Positions 1-32,930 of a stretch of 33,707 nucleotides of DNA are shown one piece after another (positions within the stretch are counted from its first letter, which is position 1; every line of letters starts with the position of its first letter). The position numbers and the translations under genes are program-made. The DNA is taken from the IMG/VR virus record IMGVR_UViG_3300045454_000107, positions 1 to 33,707 of that record, one strand, 5' to 3'. The notes under the pieces are model-generated. The model ran no database searches and had not been told where the DNA came from. It was given only the letters and a program-made list of their open reading frames with translations. The DNA is from a virus.

Positions 1-1152
1 TCACATTGCGTGCGACGGAACTGGGTTTTGTTCGGATTGCGTGCGACATTCGGCGGCGTTTTGCTCGGATTGCGTGTGACATTGGGCGGCGTTTTGCTCG
101 GATTGCGTGCGACATTGGGCGGCAGTTTTACGGGCGAGGATGAGGTCGCCCAGGGCGGATTCGACACTGCGGCGGGCGCTGCAGTGTTTGGCGTAGGCAA
201 GGAAGGACTTGACGCGCTGGCGCACGTAGTCGAGGTCGATGTGGCCGTCGTGGTAGTCGGCGGCCATGTGCTTGAAGGCCAGGCGCGCGCGCTTGATGTT
301 GCGCTTGCGCGGCAGGATGTGGGTGGGCCAGATGCGGTAGCCGCAAAAGTCGATGCCGCGCTGCCAGGGATGGATGCCGGTCTTGGGGTTGAGCGTCAGG
401 GCCAGGCCATTGACGGCTGCACCGAGATCGCGCAGGGCGCGCTGTGCGCTGGCTTTGTCGGGCAGGATGGCGACAAAGTCGTCCATGTAGCGGGCGTAGA
501 AGCGCAGACCGAGTTCGTCTTTGGCGATGTGGTCGAGCCGGTTGAGCACGATGTTGGCGGCGAGCTGACTGGTGAGCGCACCGACGGGCAGGCCGACTCC
601 GCCTTCGTGGCCGTAGCCGCCGATGACGGCGCGCCAGAGCCAGAGCACGTCGCGGTCGGCGATGGTGCGCTCGATTTCTGCCATAAGGACGTCGTGCCGG
701 ATGCTGGCGAAGTATTTGCTGATATCGGCCTTGAGGACGTAGGCGCGCTCGCCCCAGGCGCGCTTGGCAACGCGCATGAAGTGTTGCACACGCGCCACAG
801 CCGCTTGCGTGCCTTTGCCGCTGCGGCAGGCGTAGGTGTCGGCGATGAAGCCGGCCTCGAACAGGGGTTCGACGCGGCGCACCAGGGCGTGGTGCAGCAC
901 GCGGTCGGCAAAGGGCGGGGCTTGAATCTGGCGCCGCTTGGGCTCGAAGACGACGAAGGCGCGCGCGGCGCCGGGCTGCCAACTGCGCCAAACGAGGTGG
1001 TTGTGCAGGTTGATGAGGTTTTCTTCGAGGTTGAGGGCGTAGCGCATGACGTCGGGGCTGTAGCGCTTGCCCATGCGCGCAGCGCGGTAGGCGGCGTGCA
1101 GGTTTTCGAAGGCGATGAGATCAGGCCAAAGGCCGTTGTGGGTGCGGGGCAT
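1..1152 (-). CDS. DGR reverse transcriptase
   Basis: Group II intron-like reverse transcriptase of a diversity-generating retroelement. It copies the TR RNA into cDNA with errors opposite adenines. The 383-aa product shows RT motif A as KADISKYFASI (around residues 141-151), the DGR-type motif B GLPVGALTSQ (about 187-196), with SQ where most RTs have SP, and the catalytic YMDDF (222-226). The ATG lies 3 nt after the stop of the small upstream ORF, so translation is probably coupled. TR and Avd lie just upstream on the same strand. The fold seems to end near residue 345. The last ~38 residues are three 11-residue repeats (AAQCRTQSEQN type) encoded by 33-bp tandem repeats, and look appended. 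The stop codon is at positions 1-3, so the gene is complete. Family assignment is secure; activity is inferred. Confidence 0.95.
   Translation of the reverse strand: MPRTHNGLWPDLIAFENLHAAYRAARMGKRYSPDVMRYALNLEENLINLHNHLVWRSWQPGAARAFVVFEPKRRQIQAPPFADRVLHHALVRRVEPLFEAGFIADTYACRSGKGTQAAVARVQHFMRVAKRAWGERAYVLKADISKYFASIRHDVLMAEIERTIADRDVLWLWRAVIGGYGHEGGVGLPVGALTSQLAANIVLNRLDHIAKDELGLRFYARYMDDFVAILPDKASAQRALRDLGAAVNGLALTLNPKTGIHPWQRGIDFCGYRIWPTHILPRKRNIKRARLAFKHMAADYHDGHIDLDYVRQRVKSFLAYAKHCSARRSVESALGDLILARKTAAQCRTQSEQNAAQCHTQSEQNAAECRTQSEQNPVPSHAM
25..123. repeat. 33-bp tandem repeat, three copies
   Basis: Three head-to-tail 33-bp copies (25-57, 58-90, 91-123), with a degenerate partial copy to the left (about 4-20). 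They lie in the 3' end of the RT gene and are in frame (11 codons), giving the repeated 11-residue tail. Each unit carries one copy of the dispersed motif (minus-strand positions 30-49, 63-82 and 96-115). Confidence 0.9.
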
Positions 1153-1155
1153 GGG

Positions 1156-1341
1156 TCAGGCGTCGAATAGGTGCGGCACCGCTTTCTTCAGCAGTCGCTC
1201 GCGGCATTCTTGTTCCACCTCGTCCTTGAGCAGCCGGGTCATGTGCTGCAGACCCTTGTGCAGCACCTCGGTCTGCACCGAAACCGGCACGGGCGGGTCA
1301 GAGTCCATGTCTACAGCCAACGTGCACCGACCGTCCAGCAT
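1156..1341 (-). CDS. small ORF between TR and RT, possible DGR accessory protein
   Basis: The frame ends 3 nt before the RT start (TGA CCC ATG), a spacing typical of coupled genes. From the ATG at 1341 it gives 61 aa, with an acidic N-terminal part (LAVDMDSDPPVPV) and a helical basic C-terminus (LLKDEVEQECRERLLKK). The frame stays open upstream to about 1590, through the TR. The residues just before the ATG (GLGQWLRDTAD) also look protein-like, so a non-ATG start such as a TTG further up is possible. There is no clear Shine-Dalgarno sequence before the ATG. I do not recognise a family. In the Bordetella phage DGR the TR-to-RT spacer RNA is needed for cDNA priming, so this stretch could act as RNA as well as, or instead of, a protein. 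Confidence 0.45.
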   Translation of the reverse strand: MLDGRCTLAVDMDSDPPVPVSVQTEVLHKGLQHMTRLLKDEVEQECRERLLKKAVPHLFDA

Positions 1342-1454
1342 GTCGGCTGTATCGCGCAGCCACTGGCCCAGACCGGCAAGGGTCGGGAGCAAGGCCCCAA
1401 AGGATGCGCGCTGGACGCGCGCCCGGTGGGCGACGCGCCTGCTGGCGTGGGTCG

Positions 1455-1561
1455 TTTGCGAGGCGGCCGCCGATGTTCGTGTTCGCATTCGACGCGGCGT
1501 TGTTGAGGTTGAGATAGAACAGACCGGCGTTCGCGCCGTTGCCCCAATTGCCGCCGTTATA
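1455..1561 (-). other. DGR template repeat (TR)
   Basis: This 107-bp segment aligns without gaps to the VR at 2554-2660 (offset 1099). There are 96 identities and 11 differences. All differences fall on T in the + strand, that is A in the coding-sense TR (1474, 1476, 1482, 1488, 1501, 1510, 1531, 1540, 1548, 1549, 1558). The TR has 27 such adenines and none of its other 80 positions differ. Homology ends sharply at 1454 and 1562. Read in the VR frame, it specifies an Asn-rich peptide with AAC/AAT codons at the variable sites. It lies between Avd and RT, the usual TR position. Confidence 0.97.
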
Positions 1562-1598
1562 AGCCTTGCCCCTTTGTTTGATTGCAACAAGGTCTAAT

Positions 1599-1958
1599 TC
1601 ATGCGCTTGCCCCTTCGTGCTTTATCCAGGCACCGACCATGGCGCCGATTTCGTTGATGTGGCGCATCCAGACGCCCAACCGATGGCTGTTGATGTAAGC
1701 GGCGCGGTGCGCCTTGCGCACCAGGCCGCGCAGCAATTCGATTTCCACGTCAAGGTCAAACAGGGCAGCCGCTTTCTGGCGCCGTTTCCAGGCGACGATG
1801 GTCAGGCGCAGCAGCCGGTTCATTGCGGCGCGCAGGTCGGCGCAAAGCAGATGGCGCTCCAGGCGTGGAAATTGGTGCAGCACGGTATGGGTGTAGGCAT
1901 CGAGCTCTTCGAGCTTGGTCAGCAAGGCCAAATACGGGGCGGGCTGCGCCACACTCAA
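1599..1958 (-). CDS. avd: Avd-like DGR accessory protein (four-helix bundle)
   Basis: A 119-aa, largely helical and basic protein of the Avd / four-helix-bundle (S23-related) type. Avd binds the DGR reverse transcriptase and the TR RNA and is needed for mutagenic retrohoming in the Bordetella phage system. Helices rich in Leu, Arg and His are visible (LALLTKLEELDAYTHTVLHQ, DLRAAMNRLLRLTIVAWKRR and the stretch around residues 66-84), ending in HRLGVWMRHINEIGAMVGAW. The furthest start is TTG at 1958, overlapping the TGA of the upstream gene by 4 bp (TTGA). A GTG at 1952 is the alternative. Position between target and TR supports the call; family membership is judged from size, composition and context. 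Confidence 0.85.
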   Translation of the reverse strand: MSVAQPAPYLALLTKLEELDAYTHTVLHQFPRLERHLLCADLRAAMNRLLRLTIVAWKRRQKAAALFDLDVEIELLRGLVRKAHRAAYINSHRLGVWMRHINEIGAMVGAWIKHEGASA

Positions 1959-2413
1959 GCCGCCTGCTCGATGGCGCGCAGATCGGCCGCGTCGGGCGCG
2001 CTCGAGTTGGCCCAGTCGCGCACGGCGTTGATGTAGGTGGCCATGGCCTTGCGCTCGGCGGCGGGGCCGTCGCGCAGCAGATTGAGCTGGCGGTGGATTG
2101 GATAGCGCGCCTGGATGGCGGCGGCAGCCAGGCGGTTGACCTCGGCCAGGCGCTCGGCGGCAGCAGCGGCCTCGACGGCGGTGGCATCGGGCTCGAGATC
2201 GAGTTCGCCGAGCAGGGTGCAGGCGGCAAGGTCGCAGGCCGGGATGTCTTGCGCCACGCCGGGGATGCGCGCCGAAATGAACAGCCCGTCGGCGCGGTAG
2301 TCGGCGGGCACGGCCCAGACGCAGACGGTGGATGCGACTGCGAGTGTGGGCAGGGCGATGGCGTGCTCTGCGCCCTGGTGGCTCAAGTGCAGGGTGCGGT
2401 TTTCAATGTGCAT
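1955..2413 (-). CDS. probable tail fibre assembly / chaperone protein
   Basis: A 152-aa protein encoded between the DGR target fibre and Avd. In Mu-like phages this slot usually holds a fibre assembly chaperone. The N-terminal third is beta-rich (IENRTLHLSHQGAEHAIALP). The C-terminal half is helical and Ala-rich, with YPIHRQLNLLRDG and YINAVRDWANSS, reminiscent of tail-fibre-assembly proteins that end in W-x-x-x-R segments. AGGAG lies 7 nt before the ATG. It overlaps avd by 4 bp. Function comes mainly from context. Confidence 0.6.
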   Translation of the reverse strand: MHIENRTLHLSHQGAEHAIALPTLAVASTVCVWAVPADYRADGLFISARIPGVAQDIPACDLAACTLLGELDLEPDATAVEAAAAAERLAEVNRLAAAAIQARYPIHRQLNLLRDGPAAERKAMATYINAVRDWANSSAPDAADLRAIEQAA

Positions 2414-2493
2414 GGAAAGGCTCCTGGGGGTTGGGGTTGATGATGGGGTGCGGCACGCGCATCAAGCCGCGCGGCTGCATGCGCGCCGGGGCC

Positions 2494-2510
2494 GCCCCGC
2501 TCGGCGGGGC
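2494..2510 (-). repeat. GC hairpin 3' of the VR
   Basis: Perfect 7-bp inverted repeat (GCCCCGC / GCGGGGC) with a 3-nt loop. It can be extended outward by three pairs if one G-T wobble is allowed. It lies 43 bp downstream of the VR in coding sense, in the 133-bp gap before the fibre-assembly gene. In studied DGRs a short hairpin or cruciform just 3' of the VR promotes target recognition. This one is a little further away and could instead be a weak terminator, although there is no T-tract. Confidence 0.55.
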
Positions 2511-2519
2511 AGCCCAACA

Positions 2520-2545
2520 GCCACATGACGCAGGCCACATGACGC
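2520..2545 (-). repeat. direct repeat GCCACATGACGC x2 next to the VR
   Basis: Two identical 12-bp copies (2520-2531 and 2534-2545) with a 14-bp period, between the end of the VR and the hairpin at 2494-2510. The second copy reaches into the 3-bp stretch before the target stop codon. Function unknown. Confidence 0.8.
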
Positions 2546-2546
2546 C

Positions 2547-5114
2547 TTACACCTTTGCGAGGCGGCCGCCGACGGTCGTGCTCGCAGTCGACGCGGCGTC
2601 GTTGAGGTAGAGATAGAACAGACCGGCGTGCGCGCCGTCGCCCCAACCGCCGCCGTGATACGCGACGCAGTTGGGCGCTTGCCAATAGTGGTCGCCAAAG
2701 CTGCCCTGGCCGGATGCAGCCACGGCGTCGGGCACAAAGACTGCGCCCAGGTTGACTAGCCCGGCGCTGTCGCTGGCCATAGTGAGCGGTGCGCCGCTGG
2801 CCGGGGCGGTGCGGCTGCTGGTCTGGTAGCTGCGCTGGCCGTCGGTGCCCCAGATGCGGTAGCGCGAGCTGGCATCGGTCTGCAAGCCGTCGAGCATCTG
2901 CCAGACGTTGCCCCAGAGGCCAACGATGCCGCGCCAGGTGGCCTGCGCCACGGTGGCGTGGTCGACGTTGAGTGCGCTTGAGCCCGCCACATGGCCTTGA
3001 CCGATGAGAGCCTGGCTGTCGGAGCCGCCCAGCTCGATCAGGGCCAGCATCTGGATGGCGCCGAGCTGGTACACGTCCCAGAGCGCAAAGCCGGTCACGC
3101 CGCCGGTGTTGCGCGCGTTGGCGCGCGCCTGCATGGTCGGGAAGTCGATCGACACCAGCGGCGCAACACCACCCACCGAGCCCAGGCGTGTTCCGCCGTC
3201 GTTGGTGCCCTGGAACTTGCCGACCCAGAATTGCGCAATCTGCGCCCCGGCGTGCATGAAGGCCGGGTGGACGGCAAAGTTGGCCGCCGGCTGGTCGGAG
3301 ATGAGCCAAAAACGCCGCCCGGCGTGCGGCCCGCTGGGCACGGTGCCGGTGCGAAAGAAAAAGCGCGGCACGCGCACCATGGCCTGGCCGTCGATGGTCT
3401 GGTCGACGATGCCGGCATAGACCGGGTGGTTGGCGAAGGTGGCGGTGGTGGTGCTGAGGTTGTTGAAGTGCTCGTCGACGCGCTGCCAGGCCCCGGCCCC
3501 GCCGCCGGTGGCGGTTTGCACGATGCCAATGATGTGCGCGAACTGCTGGCGCGTGGTGAAGGCCACATCCGCCGACCATTCGGATGCCCCCAGGCTGGTG
3601 CCGGTGTGGCGCACGCGCAACACGTACTGCGTTTGCCCGGCCAGCAGCACACCGGCGGGCAGGGTGAGGCTGGTGCGAGCGGCTGCGCTGGCGCCCGAAT
3701 CCCACAGCGGCGCGGCCCAGGTGCCGCTGCTCAAGCGCAATTGCCATTGGCTGGAGGCATGGGCGTCGGCGCCGCCGGTGGTGGCGAAGGCGGCGGTCTG
3801 GAAGGTGGGCTGCTCGGGCACATCCGTCTGCCCCGGCGTGGGCGCAATGACAGCCGGGGTGTTGACAAAGGCGTAGCTGGCGCGGGTGGTGAAGCTGCTG
3901 CTGGCCGACCAGTCAGAGACCAGGCCGGCGGCGTCGGTGACGCGCGCACGCACGTGGAAGGTGGTATTGACCGGCAGCACCCCGGCTGGCACCGAGAAGG
4001 TGAGCGCGGCGCGCGGCCCGCTGTCGTGCAGCACGGTGGCGAAGGTGGCGTTGGTGCTGATCTGGAACTGGGTCGAGGCAAAGGCGTTGCCCGCCGGGCT
4101 GGCAAAGCCCGCCACCGACAGGGTGGGCGTCTCCACCACGTTGGTGGCACCGTTGGCGGGCGCGTTGATGACAGGCGCAGCCGGGCGCATGGCGGGGTTG
4201 ACGAAGCCGGCCTGCCCGGTGGCGCTGCCCAGGGCCACGAGGTGGCGGATGGTCATGGCTTCGCCCGCGACTTCCAGGCGCAAAAAGCCGTCGCCGCGCA
4301 TGGGCACGAGGTACTCGAAGTCGGCAAAGCCTTCGGGGATGCCGGTGGTGCCGCCGCCCGAGCGGCGCACCGACCACGGGCGCTCACTCCAGGCGGGGGT
4401 GTGCTCATCGCGGAAGAACAGCCGCACTTCGCCGGCATTGAGGCTGCGCCGGATGACGACGGCGCGCGGGGTGTGGTCGTCGCCCAGGTTGAGGGCGCGC
4501 GAGACCCATTGGTCGCCCACGACGGCGTTGACGCCGCCTTCGGCGCGCGCCACCAGCGTCGAGCCGCTGAGGGTGGCGCCTGCGCCCCAATGGCGCGCCA
4601 AGTTGGCCGACAGGCGCAGCCGGGTGGCGGAGTGGATGGCGGTGACGCGCACCAGGGCGGTGGCGCCGGCGTCGGACAGCAGATAGTCTTCGCCCACGCG
4701 CACGTCGGCGGTGCTGGCAACGTCGAGCGAGTCGTCGCCCATGATGCCGCCGGTGACGGCGACACCCGGGTGGTTTTGCAACTGGTAGCCAGCGGCAAAA
4801 AGCTCGAAGGCGATGCGCCGGTTGCGGTACAGCCAGTCCAGGTTCACGGCTTGCTGCACCGAGGCGGGTGAGGCCAAGCCCGAGAGTGTGCCCGAGATGC
4901 CGCCGATCTGGGTGATGATGGCGTTGATGGTCTGACCCAGGTCTGGCCGACCGGCGCGCGCGGCGGCCAGTTCGGCGGCGCTGGCGGCTGAGCGCTGGTC
5001 GAGGGCGCTGAAGTTGGCGTCGATCTCGGCGTAGCGCACGTTCCACAGGGCCGGGATGGCCTCGGGCTCGTTGTTCGGGATCGGGGTGATGGGGTGGTGC
5101 GGCAGGGTGCTCAT
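2547..5114 (-). CDS. DGR target: tail fibre with C-type-lectin-like variable C-terminus
   Basis: An 855-aa fibre, probably at the tail tip, acting as receptor-binding protein. The ATG has AAGGAG 8 nt upstream. Visible regions: N-terminal fibre part (1-~110), middle beta-rich part (~110-330), two fibronectin/Ig-like repeats (about 335-430 and 435-530, each ending in DWSAS/EWSAD then FTTR), and a C-terminal domain from ~540 with the FGE/C-type-lectin-like signature GIVGLWGNVWQMLDG. The last ~38 codons contain the VR (YHGGGWGDGAHAGLFYLYL). Compared with the TR, ten residues have changed, nine of them from AAC/AAT codons. The protein reaches its TAA 5 bp after the VR. The collar-type gene is immediately upstream and the assembly gene downstream. 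Confidence 0.95.
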   Translation of the reverse strand: MSTLPHHPITPIPNNEPEAIPALWNVRYAEIDANFSALDQRSAASAAELAAARAGRPDLGQTINAIITQIGGISGTLSGLASPASVQQAVNLDWLYRNRRIAFELFAAGYQLQNHPGVAVTGGIMGDDSLDVASTADVRVGEDYLLSDAGATALVRVTAIHSATRLRLSANLARHWGAGATLSGSTLVARAEGGVNAVVGDQWVSRALNLGDDHTPRAVVIRRSLNAGEVRLFFRDEHTPAWSERPWSVRRSGGGTTGIPEGFADFEYLVPMRGDGFLRLEVAGEAMTIRHLVALGSATGQAGFVNPAMRPAAPVINAPANGATNVVETPTLSVAGFASPAGNAFASTQFQISTNATFATVLHDSGPRAALTFSVPAGVLPVNTTFHVRARVTDAAGLVSDWSASSSFTTRASYAFVNTPAVIAPTPGQTDVPEQPTFQTAAFATTGGADAHASSQWQLRLSSGTWAAPLWDSGASAAARTSLTLPAGVLLAGQTQYVLRVRHTGTSLGASEWSADVAFTTRQQFAHIIGIVQTATGGGAGAWQRVDEHFNNLSTTTATFANHPVYAGIVDQTIDGQAMVRVPRFFFRTGTVPSGPHAGRRFWLISDQPAANFAVHPAFMHAGAQIAQFWVGKFQGTNDGGTRLGSVGGVAPLVSIDFPTMQARANARNTGGVTGFALWDVYQLGAIQMLALIELGGSDSQALIGQGHVAGSSALNVDHATVAQATWRGIVGLWGNVWQMLDGLQTDASSRYRIWGTDGQRSYQTSSRTAPASGAPLTMASDSAGLVNLGAVFVPDAVAASGQGSFGDHYWQAPNCVAYHGGGWGDGAHAGLFYLYLNDAASTASTTVGGRLAKV
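2554..2660 (-). other. DGR variable repeat (VR)
   Basis: Copy of the TR at the extreme 3' end of the fibre gene. Changes by codon, TR to VR: AAC to CAC (His), AAT to GGT (Gly), AAC to GAC (Asp), AAC to CAC (His), AAC to TAC (Tyr), AAC to GAC (Asp), AAT to ACT (Thr), AAC to AGC (Ser), AAC to ACC (Thr), ATC to GTC (Val). The 3' end (coding sense) is the GC-only block CGGCGGCCGCC (2561-2571), followed by TCGCAAA. It is identical in TR and VR and is the likely initiation site for mutagenic homing. Confidence 0.97.
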
Positions 5115-5126: not shown

Positions 5127-5537
5127 TTAAAAGCGGGGCATGATGCGGACTTCGTAGACTTCGCCGGCGTCGACGACCTTGGGTGCCATGGTGCGCCAGG
5201 CGACCAGGCCGCCGTCGGCGTCGATCAGGCCAGCCTCAGAAAACGCCATGCCCGGCGGGGCGCTGGCGGCGTTGAGTTCGGCAATGGACAGCGCCTCGGT
5301 GGGCGCGGGGCGCGACTGGCTGACGATGGGCACACGCACACGCTCGGCGTAGAGCGCGCTGCGGTTGGCTGGGGCGGGCCGGGCGCTGGAGCCGACATGG
5401 CCGCCGTCGCCGAAGGCCATGTGGGTGATGCGCGGCAGCGCGCGGCCACCGGCGCAGTGTTCGGCCAGGCGCTCGCGCCAGTAGTCGGTGACCACGGCTT
5501 CGGCGCGCAACAGAGTGGGTGGGCTGGGTGTACTCAT
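5127..5537 (-). CDS. tail-collar fibre protein (DUF3751-like)
   Basis: A 136-aa protein resembling the N-terminal tail-collar domain (DUF3751) that attaches fibres to the baseplate. Family-like features are HMAFGDGGHVG near residue 39, the following Tyr/Glu-rich strand (SALYAERVRVPIVSQ), and AFSEAGLIDADGGLVAWRTM. Here it is a free-standing gene rather than the head of the long fibre, which begins 12 bp after its stop. It overlaps tail gene I by 4 bp (ATGA). The fibre may be assembled from this adaptor plus the diversified distal protein; that is inference. Confidence 0.75.
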   Translation of the reverse strand: MSTPSPPTLLRAEAVVTDYWRERLAEHCAGGRALPRITHMAFGDGGHVGSSARPAPANRSALYAERVRVPIVSQSRPAPTEALSIAELNAASAPPGMAFSEAGLIDADGGLVAWRTMAPKVVDAGEVYEVRIMPRF

Positions 5538-6697
5538 GGCTGGATGCGGGTGATGCTGAGGGTGGGGGTGCGCGCGCCGCCGACGCGCCAGTGCGGCGAC
5601 AGGCGCAGGTGTACGGGTGCGGCCGGGTGGGTGACGGCACCGAGCGGCCAGCGGCCATCGAGGCGCGGGCACTCGTGCAGGGTTTGCGCCGCCAGGCGCA
5701 GGCCGCCGGGGCGCAGGCGTTGCCCGGCGCGCAGGCGCGCGCTGCTCAAGCGCCAGCGGCCATCGAGGCGGCGCGGGCGCTTGAACAGCGTGGTGGGCGG
5801 GGTGACGGCGGGGGCAAGCTGCAGCGGCAGGCGTTCGGGCCGCCAGGCGCTGGCTTGCGCCAGCGGCAGTTGCGCGCGCACGCCGTGGCCGACGCGGGTG
5901 CCGTGCAAGCGGGCGCCGGGGCGTGCGCCGTGCAAGCGCCCGAGCGCAAAGCCGAAGGGCTGCGGCAGGCGCAGGGCGGCACCGTCAGTGCCCAAGCGCC
6001 AGAGCGCATCGGGGTAGGTCGACAGGCTGCGGTTGCCCCAAGGGTGCAGGCGGCTGCTGTGCAGCGTGGCGCGCACGGCGGCGCTGGCCGCCAGCAGGTG
6101 CGGCGCGTGCAGCGCCAGCCAGAGCTGCCAGATCGGGTGGCGCGACAGCGGCGTCCACTCGCGCACCAGGGCTTGCATGAGCGGCAGTTGGCCGGACTCG
6201 AGCGCGTCGGCCAGGTTGATGCGGGCCACGAACTGCGCCCAGTGCTCGATCTGCGGGATGTAGGTCTGGCGGTCGAGCGCGCGCAGGCGCACCGCGCTGG
6301 ATAAGCGCCAGCGCGCATCGAGCCGCTGCGGCAGCAAGGCGGCGTAGATGCGGCGCTGGTCGGCTTGCTCGATGATCTCGACCGCCAGCCCGTGCTGGCG
6401 CAGCACCTCGCGCAGCGCCCAGGGTGTGCCTTTTTTTTGCTGCCAGGGGATGGCGCGCTTGATGAGCGCACGCTGCGCGGCGGCGTCGCGCGCCAGCGCC
6501 CAGCCCTCGAGTGCGCCCAGGTGGAACTGCTGCGCCAACGCGGGCAGCCAGCGCGCGTCGACCTGGTCGACGAGGTAGACCAGCAGTTGGTCGACCGGCA
6601 GCGCCGACAGGCGCGGCACCAGACTGGTCAGCGGCCCCAGGCGCGCGTCGAGCGCGAGCACGTCGGGGGCGGCGGGGTCGGGCAGCCAGTCAGCCAT
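5534..6697 (-). CDS. phage tail protein I (baseplate, Mu gp48-like)
   Basis: A 387-aa baseplate protein of the P2 gpI family. The N-terminal ~200 residues carry the family pattern (VDQLLVYLVDQVDARWLPAL, then RALIKRAIPWQQKKGTPWAL). The protein is about twice the usual length. The extra C-terminal half contains spaced copies of a short motif (RLDARWRLSS near 125, then RLDGRWRLSS and RLDGRWPLGA near the end), suggesting a repetitive beta structure. It overlaps J by 8 bp and the collar gene by 4 bp. Confidence 0.85.
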   Translation of the reverse strand: MADWLPDPAAPDVLALDARLGPLTSLVPRLSALPVDQLLVYLVDQVDARWLPALAQQFHLGALEGWALARDAAAQRALIKRAIPWQQKKGTPWALREVLRQHGLAVEIIEQADQRRIYAALLPQRLDARWRLSSAVRLRALDRQTYIPQIEHWAQFVARINLADALESGQLPLMQALVREWTPLSRHPIWQLWLALHAPHLLAASAAVRATLHSSRLHPWGNRSLSTYPDALWRLGTDGAALRLPQPFGFALGRLHGARPGARLHGTRVGHGVRAQLPLAQASAWRPERLPLQLAPAVTPPTTLFKRPRRLDGRWRLSSARLRAGQRLRPGGLRLAAQTLHECPRLDGRWPLGAVTHPAAPVHLRLSPHWRVGGARTPTLSITRIQP

Positions 6698-19387: not shown

Positions 19388-20464
19388 TCAGGCCGCCTGG
19401 CCCATCACGTGCGCCACGGCGGCGGCAAAGCTCACGCGCTCGCCGGCGCGCTCGCGCTCGTCTTGCCAGGCTTGGGCGGCGCGTGCGACGGCGCTCGGGT
19501 CGGCACTGGATGCGGCAGCGGCAGCGGTGCTGTTGCTGGCGCTGGGCGCAGCGCTGGGGGCGGCGGCGGCCCATTGGGCAAAGCCGGCCGGGTCTTTGCT
19601 GGCGTAGGCGCGCGCCCACACCAGCATGGCCGGGGGCACCTTGCCTGCGCTCATGGCGGCCTGTACGGCGGCTTCGGCAGCGGCGGCGGCTTGCTCCTTG
19701 GCCACTTGCGCGAGCTGGGCTTGCAGCGCCGCTTGCGCGGCTTGCGCGGCCTGGGCGCTGGCTTCAGATTCGCTCAGGCGCTGCTGCAGCGCTTGCGCAG
19801 CGGCGAGCAGCTCGGCGGCGCTGCTCAGGCCCGGCTGGCCGAGCAAGGCGCGCAGGCGCTCCAGGGCATCGGCCTCCAGGCTCATGGCGGCCTGGGCGCT
19901 GGCGGGTTTGGATTCGGGGGCGGTGGGGGTGGCAGACATGGCGGGTGTGCTCTCCGGTTGGCGTTGGCTGGCAGCGGCTTGCAAGGCCGCCAGGTTGGGG
20001 GTGTGGGTCAGGGCGGCGCCGTCGAGCGCCACCACGCGCGCGTCGGCCGTCAGGTAGCGGAACACCGGCGAGAGGTAGCGGTAGGCGCGGGCGGCGAGCA
20101 GCTCGGCGGCTTGCGCCGTCCAGCGCACGCGGCCCCAGATGCCGTCGGTGCGCGCTTCCAGCGCCTCGATCCAGCCCGCCACCGGCACCGGCCCGGCCTT
20201 GCTGGCGGCGTCGAGCGTCTGGTGTTCGTAGTCCAGCGGCAAGTCGCCGCCGTGGGCGGCAAAGGCGGCCAGCACGGCGTCGGCGTCGAGCGTGTAGGGG
20301 CCGCGCCCGTCGCGCCCGGCAAAAGTGCCGGCCGGCAGCAGGTGTACCCATTGTGGTGCGTCCGATCCTTCGGCCTGCGCCGCCAGCGGCAGCGCCAGGG
20401 CGCGGCTGCACGCGGCAGCCTCGGCCGGGGCGGGTTGGGTGGGGGCAAGCGGTGCGGCAGGCAT
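19388..20464 (-). CDS. prohead protease I with nested scaffold Z
   Basis: A 358-aa Mu gpI-like protein. The N-terminal ~165 residues are the protease (WVHLLPAGTFAGRDGRGPYT; GDLPLDYEHQTLDA; AYRYLSPVFRYLTAD, with conserved His and Ser candidates). The C-terminal half is a charged Ala/Gln coiled coil typical of scaffold. An internal ATG at 19939 (residue 176, MSATPTAPESKP) preceded by GGAGAG could initiate the scaffold Z alone, as in Mu. The gene is first after a late promoter element (20496-20522), and a palindrome sits right before its ATG. Confidence 0.9.
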   Translation of the reverse strand: MPAAPLAPTQPAPAEAAACSRALALPLAAQAEGSDAPQWVHLLPAGTFAGRDGRGPYTLDADAVLAAFAAHGGDLPLDYEHQTLDAASKAGPVPVAGWIEALEARTDGIWGRVRWTAQAAELLAARAYRYLSPVFRYLTADARVVALDGAALTHTPNLAALQAAASQRQPESTPAMSATPTAPESKPASAQAAMSLEADALERLRALLGQPGLSSAAELLAAAQALQQRLSESEASAQAAQAAQAALQAQLAQVAKEQAAAAAEAAVQAAMSAGKVPPAMLVWARAYASKDPAGFAQWAAAAPSAAPSASNSTAAAAASSADPSAVARAAQAWQDERERAGERVSFAAAVAHVMGQAA

Positions 20465-20465
20465 G

Positions 20466-20480
20466 GGGGCATCATGCCCC
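20466..20480. promoter_or_regulatory. leader palindrome before protease gene
   Basis: GGGGCAT C ATGCCCC: 7-bp arms with a single-base centre, 1 nt from the ATG at 20464. It would hide the only purine-rich stretch (AGGGG) in a hairpin. Confidence 0.6.
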
Positions 20481-20495
20481 TGGGCGGCCCCAACC

Positions 20496-20522
20496 TGAAT
20501 TAAAGCCGTTTAGCCTGTAGCC
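20496..20522 (-). promoter_or_regulatory. late promoter element (protease-head-tail block)
   Basis: Second of three related elements. On the minus strand it contains AGGCTAAACGGCTTTAATTCA. Its end is 31 nt from the start of the protease gene. Mu has its PI promoter in the corresponding place. Confidence 0.75.
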
Positions 20523-20647
20523 GCAATGCCGCTCAAACGCGCCAGAACCCCGTTGCCAGCGTTTGCCAGGGCCTGGGACATACCAAGGGTGCGGCTGGGG
20601 CCAAAAATCGATTGTGGGGCGTTTTGGGCGGCTGAGGGTATTGGCAC

Positions 20648-21469
20648 TCAGTCCGCATCCGGGTCGAATGTGTCTTCAACGTGGTAGTCGATGATGGTGT
20701 AGACCTTCGGCACGCCGCGCACGGTTTGCACCCGCACGTCCACGATGTAGGCCAGCTCGTGCCACTGGCGCGCAAAACGCGCGTCGCCAGCCAGCATGGC
20801 TTTCTTGACGGCGTTGTTCTCGAAGATGACTTTCACTGGCTGGGTGCTGATGCTCTCGATCACCGCGCGGTCGCCGGTGTTGGCGTTGTCGGCAAACTTG
20901 GTTTGGCTCCAGAACATGACGCGCTTGCGCTGCACGTGATCGTCCGGCTCGTTGAGCGCTTCCAATTGGCGACGGATGCCGTTTTGCGCCGCGCTGGCCT
21001 GCTCGGAGCTGATGATGAACTGGTTCACGACCCTGCCGCCTTGCGCGACGGTGAAGTTCATCTGCGCTGCGCCGTCCTTGGCGACCGGTTCGAGGATATT
21101 GCTCCACTGTCGCAGGTCACTCTTGCTCAAGTCCTTGGGCGGGTGCGTCAGCTTGCCGTTGAGCCACTCAATCACCCACTGAGCGTGCTTGACCCATTCC
21201 AGCAAGGAGCCGCCCTGCCAAAGCAGCGGCACCACGGGCATGAATTGCGCCACCAGTTCGACGACAATCGAGCCTGAGCGCACGTCCTTGATGTACAGCT
21301 CGGCACCCACCTGCTGCTGCGCTTGGGTCTCGTTCTCGATGAAGCGCTCGAACTGCTGGCCAACGCCGAGCAGCGCCAGCGTCAGGTCTGTCAGAACGAC
21401 CGGCTTTTGGTTGTTGATCGTGATTTCGAGCCGGTTGCCGAAGTCCAGATCGAGCAGTGCATGGGGCAT
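20648..21469 (-). CDS. accessory protein of unknown function
   Basis: A 273-aa protein inserted between gpG and the late protease promoter. It has less biased codons and lower GC than its neighbours. There is a beta-rich N-terminus (LEITINNQKPVVLTDLTLAL), then a strand with YIKDVRSGSIVVELV and a hydrophobic segment (AQFMPVVPLLWQGGSLLEWV, perhaps membrane-associated). A second half of strands and helices follows (RQWHELAYIVDVRVQTV; YTIIDYHVEDTF). Not a Mu structural gene that I recognise. Its start is 5 bp from the start of a divergent gene (21475). It is most likely a cargo (moron) gene; function unknown. Confidence 0.75.
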   Translation of the reverse strand: MPHALLDLDFGNRLEITINNQKPVVLTDLTLALLGVGQQFERFIENETQAQQQVGAELYIKDVRSGSIVVELVAQFMPVVPLLWQGGSLLEWVKHAQWVIEWLNGKLTHPPKDLSKSDLRQWSNILEPVAKDGAAQMNFTVAQGGRVVNQFIISSEQASAAQNGIRRQLEALNEPDDHVQRKRVMFWSQTKFADNANTGDRAVIESISTQPVKVIFENNAVKKAMLAGDARFARQWHELAYIVDVRVQTVRGVPKVYTIIDYHVEDTFDPDAD

Positions 21470-21474
21470 GATGT

Positions 21475-21807
21475 ATGAAGCCTAACACGATAATCAACCG
21501 CGGGCGCGAGTGGCTCAAGGTGCGCTCGCCCGACATGGTGGGCGCGGCGCAGTGGCGCGTGCTGCGCGCTGCGCGCACGGTGCCGGTGGCCATTTTGCAC
21601 ACCGAGTGGCTGCGCGCCTACCACCAGCGCGAAGTGGCGCTGCTGCCGGGCGACGCGCTCGATGCCGAGTTCGAGGAAAGCATCGCCTACGATGCCGACG
21701 GCAACGAGCTGAGCCGCCGCCTGGCCGTCATTCGGGTGCACGGCATCAAGTCGCCCCCGCGCCAGATGCCGCTGCCCAGCGGCGCGCCCGGCGCGCTCGA
21801 GCCCTGA
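21475..21807 (+). CDS. antiparallel accessory protein
   Basis: A 110-aa protein on the plus strand, divergent from the 20648-21469 gene and convergent with gpG. Only 5 bp separate the two divergent start codons, so each promoter must lie inside the other gene. Strong GC3 supports the frame. It has a basic N-terminus (NTIINRGREWLKVRSPDMVG), an acidic middle (LDAEFEESIAYDADGNEL), then RLAVIRVHGIKSPPRQMPLP. No family recognised. Confidence 0.65.
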   Translation: MKPNTIINRGREWLKVRSPDMVGAAQWRVLRAARTVPVAILHTEWLRAYHQREVALLPGDALDAEFEESIAYDADGNELSRRLAVIRVHGIKSPPRQMPLPSGAPGALEP

Positions 21808-21821
21808 GCCTGGGCGCCGCC

Positions 21822-22271
21822 TCACAGCGCCCCTTCGATCAGCTCGCGCAGCACGTCCAGCACCGCTTCGCGGTCGCCCTGGCCCAGGGTGCGGGCCACC
21901 GGGTCGGCCAGCAACAGTCCGCGCCGGGGCATGTGCCGGGTGCCGAACTCGTGGTAGGCGGCGTAGGGCTGGCCAAAGCCGACTTCGGCAAAGTCGCGGC
22001 CCGCGCGCGAGGTCAGGCTGCCTTGCAGGTCGCCGTGTTCGTAGAGTATCGCGCCCTTGCGCTTCTTGCGCTGCAGCGTCTGGTCTTTGAGCGCCTCCCA
22101 GGGTGAGTTGTTGGGGTCGCGCCGGCGCTCGAAGCGCTGCTCCACGCGCGCCTCCAGCTCGGTGGCAATGCCGCGCATGGCGGGCCCAAGGTCGCGCACG
22201 CGGCGCTCCAGGCGCTCCAGCGCGGCGCGCAGCTCGCGCTCTTCGAGGCGGATGGTGATCGGGGCGGGCAT
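21822..22271 (-). CDS. virion morphogenesis protein (Mu gpG-like)
   Basis: A 149-aa protein of the Phage_tail_S / gpG family: RGIATELEARVEQRFERRRD, then the hallmark WEALKDQTLQRKKRKGAILY and EHGDLQGSLTSRAGRDFAEV, ending in YAAYHEFGTRHMPRRGLLLA. It acts in head-tail joining. The longer open frame to 22385 would begin in the structured intergenic region, so the ATG at 22271 is preferred. The ribosome site is weak. Confidence 0.9.
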   Translation of the reverse strand: MPAPITIRLEERELRAALERLERRVRDLGPAMRGIATELEARVEQRFERRRDPNNSPWEALKDQTLQRKKRKGAILYEHGDLQGSLTSRAGRDFAEVGFGQPYAAYHEFGTRHMPRRGLLLADPVARTLGQGDREAVLDVLRELIEGAL

Positions 22272-22466
22272 GGCTGGGGGCTTGCTTTGAGGGTTGGCCT
22301 GGGTTAGACTGCGGTCAAGGACTGGCGGCAAAATCTCCTGGCAGATGCTGAAGGTGCGCCGGACACCGAAGGTTGGTGGGGACATTTACCCACCGGGGTC
22401 GCAAAACCCTAGCAGCGGGACTTGGAGTCCGCTGCGCCAGTCCCACGGGGCCGATCCGGCGCGGCC
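22272..22466 (-). other. F-G intergenic region with three hairpins
   Basis: A 195-bp gap with no convincing gene. It holds three consecutive inverted repeats: 22375-22380/22389-22394 (GGTGGG/CCCACC, 8-nt loop), 22396-22399/22406-22409 (GGGT/ACCC, 6-nt loop) and 22412-22422/22426-22435 (a 10-bp stem with one bulged base and 3-nt loop). It could be a terminator/processing region or a structured leader for gpG. Confidence 0.5.
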
Positions 22467-23747
22467 TCACCCACCTTCTTTCTTGAGCAAACGGCGAACT
22501 TCCGAGTCGCGTATCGCGTCCTTTTGGTGCAGGCGTCGGAAACTCGTCACCCACAAACCGGCACCGGTTCGCGTGACCTTGACCACCAGCACATGCCCGC
22601 CGCCAGCGCTGCCCGAGGGCAGCACGCGCAGGTAGATCATGCTCCTGCCCTCTTGCGCCTTGTGCGTGTAGTGGCTGATCACGCCCTGGGCCTGGGCGTA
22701 GTCGGCGGGGGTGAGCTCCGGATGCCCGGCCTTTTGCTTGGCCAAGGTGTCACCGCTCAGGCTTGCCACGCGCACTTGGGCGCGCGCGCCCAGCGCCTGC
22801 GCATCGGCATCGGGCAGCCGCACCAGCGGCCAGGCGCTGCCGTCGGGCGCGGCGTACCATTGCGCAAACAGACTGGATGCCGCCATCGATTCCAGCATGG
22901 TCGAGGCAATCGGTGCCTCCCATTGGTTGGCCTTGCGCGCCAGCACGTCAATGTGCCCCTGCCAGCGCACATGCGCCTGCCCGACGTTGTAGCCAAAGCC
23001 GGGGTCTACGTTGGCGGGCACCAGGCGTGTGCTGCCGCTGCGGCTATCCACCCAGCGCTCCAGCGCTTCGTCGGGGGCGGTTTTGATGAGGTCGTCGCGG
23101 CGCTCGTACTCGCCCCGGCGCATGGGCACGGCGCGGCAGCGGCAGCGCCAGCCGTTGGGCGGGTAGTGCGTGTGCCAGAATGGGTCGTCCACCGGCAGCG
23201 TGACGTTGTGCCAGGGGCGGTGGCTTTTGCGCACGCGCTCGTCGGCGCGCGTGACGTAGCGCAAATAGGGGTGCGTGGCCTTGGCGGCCTGGATGCGCTC
23301 CCAGCGCCCGGCGGCGTAGGCCATGCGCGTGTTCACGTCGTAGATAAGCTGCAGCCGCGCCGGGTTGAAGGTGGTGCGCACCAGGCGCCCGTCGGGTGTG
23401 GGCACCTCGCGCTCGCCCCACCAGCCGGCCTCGCCCAGCAGTTGGCGCGCGTTCTTGGTCCAGTCGCGCCGCGTCAGGTCGCCGCCCACGCTGGCCTTGA
23501 TGCCCTCGTGCAGGCTTTGCAGCAAGTCGGCGCGCGCCAGGCGGCTTACCGTAAAGGCGCGCGCGTGCTCCTCGTGCCAGAGCTCGCGCCAGTCGTAGGT
23601 AAGGCGCACACGGTCGCGCCCGCGCAGGTAGCGCTGCGCCTCTTCGGGCGGCAGGCGAAAGGCGCGCGCAAAGGCGCTGGGCGTGCCAGCGTCGGGCGGC
23701 GCAAACAGCGGCACCGGGCCGGGGTCAGACTCCAGACGCACCGGCAT
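22467..23747 (-). CDS. MuF head morphogenesis protein with C-terminal PBECR-type nuclease domain
   Basis: A 426-aa minor head protein. The MuF domain spans about 60-235: YDVNTRMAYAAGRWERIQAA, then HPYLRYVTRADERVRKSHRP and the metal-binding-like GWRCRCRAVP (199-207). The tail (about 315-426) resembles the phage Barnase-EndoU-ColicinE5/D-RelE-like (PBECR) nuclease domains fused to MuF proteins: LSGDTLAKQKAGHPELTPAD, then SMIYLRVLPSG and LVVKVTRTGAGLWVTSFRRL. Such domains are thought to be injected toxins or tRNA nucleases. GGAG lies 8 nt before the ATG. The MuF part is secure; the nuclease family is judged by pattern. Confidence 0.88.
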   Translation of the reverse strand: MPVRLESDPGPVPLFAPPDAGTPSAFARAFRLPPEEAQRYLRGRDRVRLTYDWRELWHEEHARAFTVSRLARADLLQSLHEGIKASVGGDLTRRDWTKNARQLLGEAGWWGEREVPTPDGRLVRTTFNPARLQLIYDVNTRMAYAAGRWERIQAAKATHPYLRYVTRADERVRKSHRPWHNVTLPVDDPFWHTHYPPNGWRCRCRAVPMRRGEYERRDDLIKTAPDEALERWVDSRSGSTRLVPANVDPGFGYNVGQAHVRWQGHIDVLARKANQWEAPIASTMLESMAASSLFAQWYAAPDGSAWPLVRLPDADAQALGARAQVRVASLSGDTLAKQKAGHPELTPADYAQAQGVISHYTHKAQEGRSMIYLRVLPSGSAGGGHVLVVKVTRTGAGLWVTSFRRLHQKDAIRDSEVRRLLKKEGG

Positions 23748-23774
23748 GGCCTAGCTCCGGCGTGCGCTGCGCCC

Positions 23775-23804
23775 GACCATTTTGCCGGCGTCAGCAAAAT
23801 GGTC
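23775..23804. repeat. 11-bp perfect inverted repeat between portal and F
   Basis: GACCATTTTGC ... GCAAAATGGTC with an 8-nt loop, overlapping the portal stop codon. AT-rich arms stand out in this sequence. Candidate terminator or attenuator, without a T-tract. Confidence 0.7.
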
Positions 23805-25398
23805 AGGCATCGTCGTCACCCTCAGTCGCGGCTTCCAGCCCGTGCGTGCCGCCGATGCGTGCGCTGTAGGCGGCGCGCGCCAGCGCTTCGGTAAGCTGCG
23901 CCTCGTCGGGCTGCGCCAGCGTGGGCGCGAGCGCGTCGAGCAGCTCGGCGGCGCTCCAGCCCTCGCGCTCGGCGCGTGCAAAGAGCTGCTCCAGCGGCGC
24001 CAGCACCGGCCCCATCTGCTGGTGCCAGCCGGCCATGGCCTCGTCGATCAGGGCATCGATGGCGTCGGGCGCGGCGCTCGGCTCGGCGGCGTGCGCCACC
24101 TGCCCATGCACGCCCCTTGTCGCACCCAATGCGGGCACGGCAGGGGCCAGCCGCCGCTGCGCCGCCAGGTTGGTGGCTTGGGCTGGCGGCGTGAGCAGCG
24201 GCTCGTCGCCATCGGGCTCGGGGATGCCCCATTTCTGCCGCGCCCAGCCCTGCGGCACCGGCAGCCCCAGCGCCACCAGGCGCGCCACCTGCAGCGACAG
24301 GCCGTCGAGGTCGTCGGGCTCCACCATTTCGAAGCGCAGGCGCGGCAGCGGCGCGGCCTCGCCCAGGTTCAGGCGCACCAGCGGTGCGGCCAGGTCGCGC
24401 GTGAGCGTCGCGGCCAGGGCGCGTGCGTCGGCAGCCAGTAGCTCCTTGCGCACGTCGTCGTGCACGCGCGCCTGCGCCAGGCTGCCCGTGGCGCCCTGGT
24501 CGGTGGTCAGGGTCTGGCCCAGCACCGCCTTGCTCACCGCGCGGTCGAGGTATTCGATCAGCTTTTGGTACAGGTCGGCACTCGCAGTCTTGCCCGCCGC
24601 CTCCACCAGCTCGAGCATCATGGACTGCGGGATCACCGCCGCCGCATCCGCACCCAGGCCCAGCACGGCTTCTTTGAGCACGTCCACGTCTTGCGGCGTG
24701 GCGGCCGGGTCGTACTTGCCGATGCGAATCGGTTGCCCGTACAGCTCGGCAAAGCGCGCCCAGTCGCGCAGCGCGTAGGCTTTCACCACCCAGGCCCACA
24801 GCACCGCGCGCGCCACGCCCTGCTGCAAGGGCAGTCCCGCGCCGCCCAGCGCATGCACCACAAAGCGCGCTGCGGGCAGCGGCTCGCCGGCAAACGGCTG
24901 CTCGGCGCTGAGCAGGCGCAGCTCGGGCGCTCCCTCGCGCGTCCAGGCAAACCAGTGCGCCGGGCGCGGCAGCAGCGCGCGCGGCCGCCACGGCTGGCGG
25001 CGCGTGTCCCACACCAGCTCGGCCACGGCGTAGCCCTTGGCCACCGCGCCCATCAGGTGCATGGCGACCTCATTCATGGGCAGCTCGGCCAGCACCGCGC
25101 GCACCAGCTCGGCCGCCTCGTGCGCGGCGGGCGTGTCGTCGGCGGCATCCACCAGCAGCGGCAGGGCGGAGACCGCCATGCAGCGGCTTTGCAGCACGGC
25201 GCGGTAGTGCAGGTCTTTTTCGGCGATTTCGTCGGCGGCGAGCAAAAAGTCGCGCCCGTCGCCCTGCGCGGCGCGGCGCAAAATGCTTGCCACCCGCGTG
25301 GGTGTGAGGCTGGCCAGTGCGCGCCAGTGCGCGTGGCTGCGCGGCCCGCCGCGCGTGGGCGTGGCGATCTCGGTGTTCAGGTCGGCGGCGCGTACCAT
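23803..25398 (-). CDS. portal protein (Mu gp29-like, DUF935)
   Basis: A 531-aa portal forming the DNA channel at the head vertex. The DUF935 pattern is clear: DEIAEKDLHYRAVLQSRCMA, then AKGYAVAELVWDTRRQPW, VVKAYALRDWARFAELYGQP, and VLGQTLTTDQGATGSLAQAR. It follows the collagen-like gene by 4 bp. The C-terminal ~120 residues are variable. A dispersed motif copy lies at 24117. Confidence 0.93.
   Translation of the reverse strand: MVRAADLNTEIATPTRGGPRSHAHWRALASLTPTRVASILRRAAQGDGRDFLLAADEIAEKDLHYRAVLQSRCMAVSALPLLVDAADDTPAAHEAAELVRAVLAELPMNEVAMHLMGAVAKGYAVAELVWDTRRQPWRPRALLPRPAHWFAWTREGAPELRLLSAEQPFAGEPLPAARFVVHALGGAGLPLQQGVARAVLWAWVVKAYALRDWARFAELYGQPIRIGKYDPAATPQDVDVLKEAVLGLGADAAAVIPQSMMLELVEAAGKTASADLYQKLIEYLDRAVSKAVLGQTLTTDQGATGSLAQARVHDDVRKELLAADARALAATLTRDLAAPLVRLNLGEAAPLPRLRFEMVEPDDLDGLSLQVARLVALGLPVPQGWARQKWGIPEPDGDEPLLTPPAQATNLAAQRRLAPAVPALGATRGVHGQVAHAAEPSAAPDAIDALIDEAMAGWHQQMGPVLAPLEQLFARAEREGWSAAELLDALAPTLAQPDEAQLTEALARAAYSARIGGTHGLEAATEGDDDA
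24117..24136 (+). repeat. dispersed 20-bp motif, copy in portal gene
   Basis: TTGTCGCACCCAATGCGGGC matches the consensus exactly. Plus orientation. It is read as LGATRG in the portal. Confidence 0.75.
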
Positions 25399-25402
25399 GG
25401 GC

Positions 25403-26179
25403 TTAAGCCTCGATCAGGTAGATGGCGGGGATGTTGCCCGCGCCCGCCGTCAGCCCGGCCGGGGCGTTGGCGGGCAGGGTCGAGCCGCTGCCAGCGGCAA
25501 ACAGGTGCGAGATCAGCGCGTTGCCGCCCACCTGGCGACCAAGCCCGCTGGCGATGCTGTTGGTCTGCAGCGCGCGCAGCGTAGCGCCCGCCGATGCGAT
25601 CAGACAGGCCCAGTACAGCACGCCGGGCTGCAGTTCGAAGTTGGTGCCAAAATTGCCCGTCTGGTCGCCCACCGCAATGGACAGCGCCGCCGTTTGCGCC
25701 AGCAGCGCGCCCGGCTCGTCGCTGCCGTCGGCAGCGCTGCGGTTGGCGTACAGGCCCAGGCGCAGATCGCCCGCTGCCGCTACCGTGACCGATGCGCGCA
25801 GCGCACTGAGCAGCACCGGGCGCGGTGCCTGCAGCGGCACAAAATACAAGCGCTCTGCGGTCAGCACCAGCGTGCCCAGCGGCTGCGCGCTGGCATCGCC
25901 CACGATACGCGGCGTCGCCAGGCGGCGCGGCCAGGGCCGCCCGGCTGGGCCAGGCAAACCTTCCGGCCCCTCCGGCCCCATCAAACCTTCCGGCCCCGCT
26001 GGCCCGGTTGGCCCCGGCGGCCCCGGCAGACCCGGCAGACCCGGCAGACCCGGCGGCCCCGCTGGCCCAGCCGGCCCCGGCAGGCCCGGCTGTTGCGCGC
26101 GCACCACAGGCGCGCTGGCGTGTACCTGCACCAGCACCTGCGGCGAGCGCACCTGCAGCACGCGCAGCGGCTCAGTCAT
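25403..26179 (-). CDS. collagen-like repeat protein
   Basis: A 258-aa protein. After a short N-terminus ([20 protein letters not shown]) comes a run of about 16 Gly-X-Y triplets (about residues 32-82: [19 protein letters not shown] and onward), then a compact beta-rich C-terminal domain (~85-258; [35 protein letters not shown]). This layout is typical of trimeric fibres: a collagen-like shaft and a trimerising head. It lies between terminase and portal, which is unusual for a fibre; it could decorate the head. GGAGG lies 9 nt before the ATG; the gene overlaps its upstream neighbour by 8 bp. Confidence 0.8.
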
Positions 26180-28358: not shown

Positions 28359-28377
28359 TACGCCTCCCGCCGGGCCG

Positions 28378-28406
28378 CCCCAAGGGGAGCGTGCGCCCCC
28401 TTGGGG
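28378..28406. repeat. REP-like GC hairpin between gp26 and gp27
   Basis: CCCCAAGGGG / CCCCTTGGGG: perfect 10-bp arms with a 9-nt loop, in a ~95-bp gap. From memory, similar elements are frequent between genes of Comamonadaceae genomes, so this looks like a host interspersed repeat or terminator that entered the prophage. Confidence 0.7.
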
Positions 28407-28452
28407 GGAAGCGAACGAATGTGAGCGTGGGAACTTTGCATGGCCTGCCGCC

Positions 28453-29858: not shown

Positions 29859-29861
29859 GCA

Positions 29862-29874: not shown

Positions 29875-29890
29875 CAGCCTGGCCCACGGC

Positions 29891-29917: not shown

Positions 29918-29926
29918 CCCGTGCGG

Positions 29927-32927: not shown

Positions 32928-32930
32928 CGC

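What the first reader, a model, noticed from the sequence alone, without database searches (positions are those of the whole stretch)
1..5114. Complete diversity-generating retroelement at the fibre end of a Mu-like prophage
The order is fibre with C-terminal VR, assembly-like protein, Avd, TR, small ORF, RT. All are on one strand and mostly overlapping or closely spaced. TR (1455-1561) and VR (2554-2660) are 107 bp; 11 differences, all at TR adenines (coding sense) out of 27, and zero at the other 80 positions. This is the sign of adenine-directed mutagenesis, so the element has been active since the last homing event. DGRs are known; one driven as part of the late operon of a BcepMu/Mu-type phage with this order is, as far as I know, little described.
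Basis: partly seen in the sequence, partly recalled or inferred. Interest (0 to 1): 0.92.

Follow-up and report, generated by a model that had tools for sequence, protein, structure and literature searches.

The report
Fibre-mutating retroelement in a Mu-like phage
A Mu-like bacterial virus carries the known reverse-transcriptase system that keeps rewriting the tip of its tail fibre. The system is of a known kind, but here half of the folded RNA that should serve as the enzyme's docking site has been replaced by a small protein-coding frame, while the fibre still shows a clean trace of rewriting.

Summary
TR (1455-1561) and VR (2554-2660) differ at 11 of 107 positions, all at TR adenines (chance about 4e-8). 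RT, Avd, fibre and target hairpin are all present, and the RT is closest to the BPP-1 DGR RT. The fibre tip is predicted to have the C-type-lectin fold of DGR variable proteins. The phage is Mu-like (Mu portal, F, I protease, GemA, MuB).

The novelty claim does not hold. DGRs in Mu-like phages are published (YPCBV-1, Hankyphage, Mushu) and deposited (BalMu-1). Ten of 29 related Mu-like records carry this RT near one end.

Two features are unusual in the material examined. First, over 100 related loci carry a strongly covarying, roughly 140-nt spacer RNA between TR and RT. The window keeps only its 5' half (1381-1451); an orphan 78-aa ORF with coding signature, stopping just before the RT ATG, occupies the rest. 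Second, the RT's repetitive C-terminal tail (25-129) is encoded by the repeated end-site array that marks the right end of related Mu-like prophages.

So this is an ordinary Avd-type DGR with an unusual template RNA. Whether that RNA works, is compensated, or marks recent inactivation needs an experiment.

The parts
1..1152 (-). DGR reverse transcriptase, 383 aa, YMDD and GALTSQ motifs
   Evidence: PF00078 E 5.9e-20; phrog_1423 reverse transcriptase E 2.2e-126; best solved relative is the reverse transcriptase of 8ub7-8ube (read as BPP-1 bRT from general knowledge) at E 4.5e-51, against about 1e-20 for group II RTs
25..129 (-). 33-bp tandem repeat (3.2 copies) encoding the RT tail (AAxCxTQSEQN)x3; inferred right-end transposase-site array of the phage (site GTCGCACGCAATCCGAG); a fourth, degenerate copy abuts the record edge
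   Evidence: homologous arrays follow or overlap the RT end in L007, L082, L228, L229, L230; in Gulbenkiania the array marks the end of a prophage that interrupts an mltB-like gene
1156..1392 (-). small ORF, 78 aa from TTG 1392 (50 aa if from ATG 1308); stop codon 3 nt before the RT ATG; orphan
   Evidence: codon-position GC 0.75/0.39/0.78; no relative found in viral contigs, phages, 399 Burkholderiales genomes; only an E 0.5 plasmid match
1381..1451 (-). 5' half (model positions 1-66) of the conserved DGR spacer RNA; 3' half with the long hairpin absent
   Evidence: R1 38.7 bits, R2 29.0 bits
1455..1561 (-). template repeat TR, 27 adenines
1599..1952 (-). Avd accessory variability determinant, 117 aa
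   Evidence: PF22296 bAvd E 3.1e-24; phrog_3206; NF033474 98.8 bits, cutoff 80
1955..2413 (-). 152-aa protein, tail-fibre-assembly-like by eye; no family match
2494..2510 (-). hairpin 43 bp after VR (GCCCCGC-CGA-GCGGGGC, extendable to 12 bp), position of the BPP-1 target hairpin/cruciform
   Evidence: hairpins at 34-44 bp in most relatives; requirement in BPP-1 from PMC3240598
2554..2660 (-). variable repeat VR, last codons of the fibre gene
2547..5114 (-). tail fibre, 855 aa; Ig-like middle, C-terminal C-type-lectin/FGE-type domain carrying VR
   Evidence: phrog_5302 tail protein E 1.4e-32; PF25788; AF2 model pLDDT 87, pTM 0.90; Foldseek best TaqVP 5vf4 E 3.6e-13, also Mtd and TvpA
5127..5540 (-). 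phage tail-collar fibre, N-terminal type
   Evidence: PF12571 E 1.8e-5
5534..6697 (-). tail protein I (Tail_P2_I); upstream in the same late run
   Evidence: PF09684 E 4.3e-17
19388..33707 (-). Mu-type genes: I protease 19388-20464, F 22467-23747, Mu portal 23803-25398, terminase 26504-27841, GemA 31456-31965, MuB-like 32931-33707

Best explanation
It is an Avd-type diversity-generating retroelement, the last module of the late gene run of a Mu-like transposable phage. RT and Avd copy the template RNA (TR plus flank) into cDNA with random bases opposite adenines. The cDNA replaces VR at the 3' end of the fibre gene, aided by the hairpin after VR, and so changes up to 14 residues on the lectin-fold tip that should bind the host. 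Shown here: the parts, the adenine-only difference pattern, the fold prediction and the Mu-like setting. Inferred from BPP-1: the enzymology and the effect on host range. The element departs from its relatives in one part. The 3' half of the conserved spacer RNA, whose BPP-1 counterpart recruits RT-Avd and primes cDNA synthesis, is replaced by a short ORF coupled to RT. I think it most likely that the element worked until recently or still works with the retained 5' half. The second part is open.
For: 11/11 differences at TR adenines, 0/80 elsewhere (P 4e-8). 98 distinct TR/VR pairs of relatives found by the same scan: 1185 changes at 2478 adenines, 45 at 8636 other positions (the scan favours such pairs). 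RT nearest to the DGR RT in PDB, RT dN/dS about 0.19 against relatives. Avd above curated cut-off. VR fold matches TaqVP, Mtd and TvpA. Target hairpin position kept with changed stem sequence. Mu-type portal, F, I, GemA, MuB. Ten of 29 Mu-like records with related terminases carry this RT within about 2 kb of one end.
Against: No reads or near-identical strains were available, so present activity is not shown. Half of the spacer RNA is missing, and relatives keep it with strong covariation. The window RT has 11 unique changes at otherwise invariant positions, against 0-7 in relatives, though it has no close sister in the set.
Confidence: 0.93

Rival explanations
1. The DGR is recently dead: an ORF-bearing segment replaced the 3' half of the spacer RNA, and the clean TR/VR pattern is a young fossil of past activity.
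For: Spacer helices that are kept with compensatory changes in over 100 loci are gone. Spacer positions invariant in close relatives are also altered in the retained half (GCCAGAAG to GCCAGCAG, TTGTCC to TTGCTCC). RT has 11 unique changes.
Against: No drift at 80 non-A positions between TR and VR. RT, Avd and target hairpin look intact. L098 also lacks the last 50 spacer positions and still has a 15:1 A-biased TR/VR pair.
Confidence: 0.3
2. The spacer anomaly is an assembly chimera in a metagenomic or trimmed record, not a real sequence.
For: The record is an IMG/VR entry of 33,707 bp trimmed exactly at gene edges. The segment has no relative in any collection searched.
Against: Avd and RT on either side are about equally distant from the same relatives (75% to L002 each). 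The ORF stops 3 nt before the RT ATG and has the codon-position composition of a gene, which a chance join would not give.
Confidence: 0.07
3. The RT belongs to another class (group II intron, retron or defence RT) and the repeats are unrelated duplications.
For: NCBIfam's best sub-cutoff hit is the group II RT model (122 bits against a cut-off of 300).
Against: The DGR RT is far closer in PDB (4.5e-51 against about 1e-20); Avd is present; TR/VR is adenine-only; the RT is 65-75% identical to RTs of loci with the same kind of TR/VR.
Confidence: 0.01

Closest known systems
Bordetella phage BPP-1 DGR (mtd-avd-TR-brt)
   Same: Order target-VR, avd, TR, spacer, RT; adenine-only changes; C-type-lectin variable domain; hairpin after VR; RT homologous (39.8% identity)
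   Different: BPP-1 has a site-specific tRNA attachment site, not Mu-type ends, and a full spacer RNA (RF03022). The window has a Mu-like phage, an extra 152-aa gene, half a spacer RNA and an ORF in its place
Mu-like phages with DGR: Chromohalobacter phage YPCBV-1, Bacillus phage BalMu-1, Hankyphage, Faecalibacterium phage Mushu
   Same: Mu-like phage with DGR; in YPCBV-1 and BalMu-1 the tail gene with VR, Avd position, TR and RT lie at the right end in the same order. PMC9769972, PMC6199706, PMC5883640
   Different: Full spacer RNA in BalMu-1 and YPCBV-1; RT 39-42% identical to the window's; different target proteins
Gulbenkiania mobilis DSM 18507 Mu-like prophage (L082/L003)
   Same: RT 72%, terminase 87%, DGR at the right end, RT C-terminus running into the end-site array
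   Different: Full spacer RNA; second VR target in the early region about 30 kb away; no tail repeats in RT
Thermus aquaticus variable protein TaqVP
   Same: Closest solved fold to the fibre tip (5vf4)
   Different: Thermus protein rather than the tip of an 855-aa phage tail fibre; only 17-20% sequence identity

Membership tests
Diversity-generating retroelement (Avd type, BPP-1-like) | TR/VR pair differing essentially only at TR adenines | tested here: met
   11 of 11
Diversity-generating retroelement (Avd type, BPP-1-like) | RT of the DGR lineage | tested here: met
   Best PDB match is the DGR RT of 8ub7-8ube; phrog_1423; YMDD and GALTSQ motifs. No tree with outgroup RTs was built
Diversity-generating retroelement (Avd type, BPP-1-like) | Avd accessory protein | tested here: met
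   NF033474 above cutoff, PF22296
Diversity-generating retroelement (Avd type, BPP-1-like) | VR in a C-type-lectin-fold variable domain | tested here: met
   Foldseek TaqVP 3.6e-13, Mtd, TvpA on a model of pLDDT 87
Diversity-generating retroelement (Avd type, BPP-1-like) | Hairpin/cruciform downstream of VR | tested here: met
   2494-2510, +43 bp; the loop is CGA rather than the GRNA tetraloop of PMC3240598
Diversity-generating retroelement (Avd type, BPP-1-like) | Structured spacer RNA between TR and RT | tested here: not met
   Only the 5' half is present. This feature is conserved in the family and needed in BPP-1, but it is not what defines membership; the other defining features are met
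Diversity-generating retroelement (Avd type, BPP-1-like) | Mutagenic retrohoming in cells | not testable with these tools
   Needs reads or a reporter assay
Mu-like transposable phage | Mu-type head, portal and early proteins | tested here: met
   PF06074, PF04233, PF10123, PF06252; phrog_296 DNA transposition protein
Mu-like transposable phage | MuA-type transposase and phage ends with short target duplication | tested here: inconclusive
   MuA lies outside this trimmed record. In the related Gulbenkiania prophage a MuA-size ORF, both end arrays and a GCGGT (or GCGG) duplication in an mltB-like gene are read
Rfam RT-14 (RF02921) / Phage_DGR (RF03022) RNA | Match above gathering score | tested here: not met
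   None in the window; BalMu-1 and L071 hit RT-14, BPP-1 hits Phage_DGR

The most novel reading that the evidence does not exclude
The DGR still works although the 3' half of its template-spacer RNA is gone, because the small protein encoded in its place, co-transcribed with TR and coupled to RT, has taken over the role of the lost RNA half in assembling RT, Avd and template.
Probability: 0.12. Interest if true: 0.75.

Novelty: new variant of a known kind. Interest (0 to 1): 0.42.

Why it matters
The DGR itself is a further example of phages using targeted hypermutation of a receptor-binding tip, here in a Mu-like phage group where this module repeatedly sits just inside the right end. The altered spacer is the useful part. 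It is a natural deletion of a structured RNA otherwise kept with compensatory changes across phyla, next to a TR/VR pair with no sign of decay. Testing this cassette would show how much of the spacer RNA is truly needed for adenine mutagenesis and retrohoming, and whether a protein can replace RNA in that complex. The overlap of RT with the phage end array shows how tightly the module is packed against the transposition signals.

Tried and rejected
Other RT class: rejected (and the TR/VR pattern). Small ORF as a conserved DGR accessory gene: rejected; close relatives have a non-coding spacer RNA there, with single-base indels that break every frame. Small ORF as a member of a known family: no Pfam, PHROG or NCBIfam hit and no homologue in viral contigs, phages or 399 Burkholderiales genomes; the plasmid match at E 0.5 is chance level. 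A displaced 3' half of the spacer elsewhere in the window: none found. Unusual RNA stability of the replaced segment: none (z -0.73). A second VR in the window: none. Strain variants of the same phage to test VR polymorphism: no exact match to the ORF segment in IMG/VR. A single hit to the end-site 17-mer (L148) lies in unrelated sequence. High TR DNA identity to Faecalibacterium phage FP_Lagaffe (83% over 88 bp) despite 35% RT identity was not pursued; it probably reflects the shared asparagine-rich lectin code.
Full report
What was claimed and what is there. Recomputing the alignment gives 107-bp TR and VR with 11 differences, all at the 27 TR adenines and none at the other 80 positions; similarity ends sharply at both sides. 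If differences fell at random, the chance of all 11 landing on adenines is 4.2e-8. In the fibre frame the 11 changes alter ten residues (N to H, G, D, H, Y, D, T, S, T and I to V). Eleven of the TR codons are AAC/AAT, none of the adenine changes can make a stop, and the possible repertoire is about 1e14 proteins.

The parts. RT: RVT_1, PHROG 1423; the nearest solved structure is the reverse transcriptase of entries 8ub7-8ube at 4.5e-51, with group II RTs at about 1e-20. I identify those entries as BPP-1 bRT from general knowledge; the tool prints only 'Reverse transcriptase'. Avd: Pfam bAvd, PHROG Avd, NCBIfam Avd above its curated cut-off. Fibre: an 855-aa tail protein with an Ig-like middle. 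A model of its last 316 residues (pLDDT 87, pTM 0.90) matches the DGR variable proteins TaqVP, Mtd and TvpA. After VR comes a GC-rich hairpin (2494-2510) at a distance similar to relatives, whose stem sequences differ but still pair. BPP-1 needs such a hairpin for efficient homing (PMC3240598).

The setting. The record is a 33,707-bp IMG/VR entry cut exactly at gene edges on both sides (RT stop at bases 1-3; ATG of a MuB-like gene at 33707). Its genes are Mu-like: Mu portal, protein F, I protease, GemA, a MuB-like transposition ATPase, sheath, tape measure, baseplate J and tail protein I. MuA is not in the record. Closest RTs (65-75% identity) are in beta-proteobacterial prophages and metagenomic phages.

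Not rare. The DGR order is that of BPP-1. BalMu-1 and YPCBV-1 have it at the right end, and Hankyphage and Mushu are published Mu-like DGR phages (PMC6199706, PMC5883640, PMC9769972). Of 29 records with related terminases, 10 carry this RT, each within about 2 kb of a record end. A scan of related loci found 98 distinct TR/VR pairs with 1185 changes at 2478 adenines and 45 at 8636 other positions; the scan favours such pairs, so this is consistency, not an independent estimate.

The unusual part: the spacer RNA. In BPP-1 the sequence between TR and RT folds, recruits RT-Avd and supplies the priming adenine (PMC12875486). Twelve close relatives have a conserved 140-nt spacer there. A covariance model built from them found the same RNA in the expected place in most related DGRs, including BalMu-1. 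On 60 distinct sequences 93.7% of pair cells are standard pairs (64.9% when shuffled, at most 51.5% when slid), and 30 of 33 pairs show changes on both sides. The alignment was fitted to the model, which leans towards the structure, but the slid controls are far lower. A second model recovers it in further loci that were not used to build it, over 100 loci in all, not all independent. Rfam knows relatives: RT-14 for BalMu-1 and L071, Phage_DGR for BPP-1. In the window only the first 66 model positions remain (1381-1451), also with filters off; the last two thirds of the helices are missing and not found elsewhere. The TR-to-RT distance is 302 bp, against about 150-190 in most relatives. The extra sequence is an ORF of 78 aa (1156-1392) with strong codon-position signature (GC 0.75/0.39/0.78) that stops three bases before the RT start codon. 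No homologue was found. One other locus, L098, lacks the last 50 positions and still has a clean TR/VR, so loss of the 3' hairpin may be tolerated.

Working or dead? For working: TR and VR have not drifted apart at 80 non-A positions; RT is under purifying selection relative to its relatives (dN/dS about 0.19); Avd has no unusual changes. Against: two otherwise invariant spacer motifs are altered, and the RT carries more unique changes than any relative, though it also has no close sister. These data cannot decide.

The RT tail. The window RT ends in three copies of an 11-residue repeat encoded by 33-bp tandem repeats (25-129). They contain GTCGCACGCAATCCGAG. Related phages have the same kind of site in outward-facing arrays directly at or after the RT end (L007, L082, L228-L230). 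In Gulbenkiania mobilis the arrays lie at both ends of a roughly 38.7-kb prophage that splits an mltB-like gene, with a GCGGT (or GCGG) duplication; the best matches in that genome all lie inside the prophage. By analogy with Mu these are transposase end sites. So the window's left edge is the phage's right end, and in this phage the RT frame runs through the array. The identification as transposase sites is inferred.

Verdict. A real DGR of the known Avd type in a Mu-like phage, a recurrent arrangement; a variant because of its halved spacer RNA.

Noticed in passing
Gulbenkiania mobilis genome, contig 5 around 133611-134798 (in L140), minus strand: The Mu-like prophage related to the window has a second lectin-type target gene next to the MuB region, with a VR matching the right-end TR with 13 adenine changes and no others in the 103-bp core, about 30 kb from the TR. 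The window has no such gene.
   Followed up: partly
L012, L086, L087, L088 (Pseudothauera, Pigmentiphaga, Burkholderia), about 3800-8074: Two DGR cassettes in tandem: TR1 with RT1, then a second Avd, TR2 and RT2, each with its own spacer RNA hit. TR2 has no VR nearby; in three genomes its VR (10-15 adenine changes, 1-3 others) lies on a different contig, in a gene resembling the second Gulbenkiania target.
   Followed up: partly
window 19357-19373 (-); weaker 24119 (+), 31353 (+): Exact internal copy of the 17-bp right-end site in an intergenic gap; six matches with up to 3 mismatches in the window against 0.27 expected. The related Gulbenkiania prophage also has internal copies. Possibly dispersed transposase or repressor sites.
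   Followed up: partly
L134 5834-5977 and L071 6833-6977: Rfam RT-14 RNA (RF02921) coincides with the DGR spacer between TR and RT in BalMu-1 and L071, so RT-14 appears to be a DGR template-spacer RNA.
   Followed up: yes
L015: One TR with two VRs, about 0.8 kb upstream of the TR and about 6 kb downstream, past the RT.
   Followed up: no
L222-L227, downstream of RT: A gene that reads by eye like the window's 152-aa protein (1955-2413) lies after RT in these Mu-like relatives, but between fibre and Avd in the window; it moves as a module.
   Followed up: no
window 1470-1555 versus Faecalibacterium phage FP_Lagaffe: TR DNA is 83% identical over 88 bp although the RT is only 35% identical.
   Followed up: no
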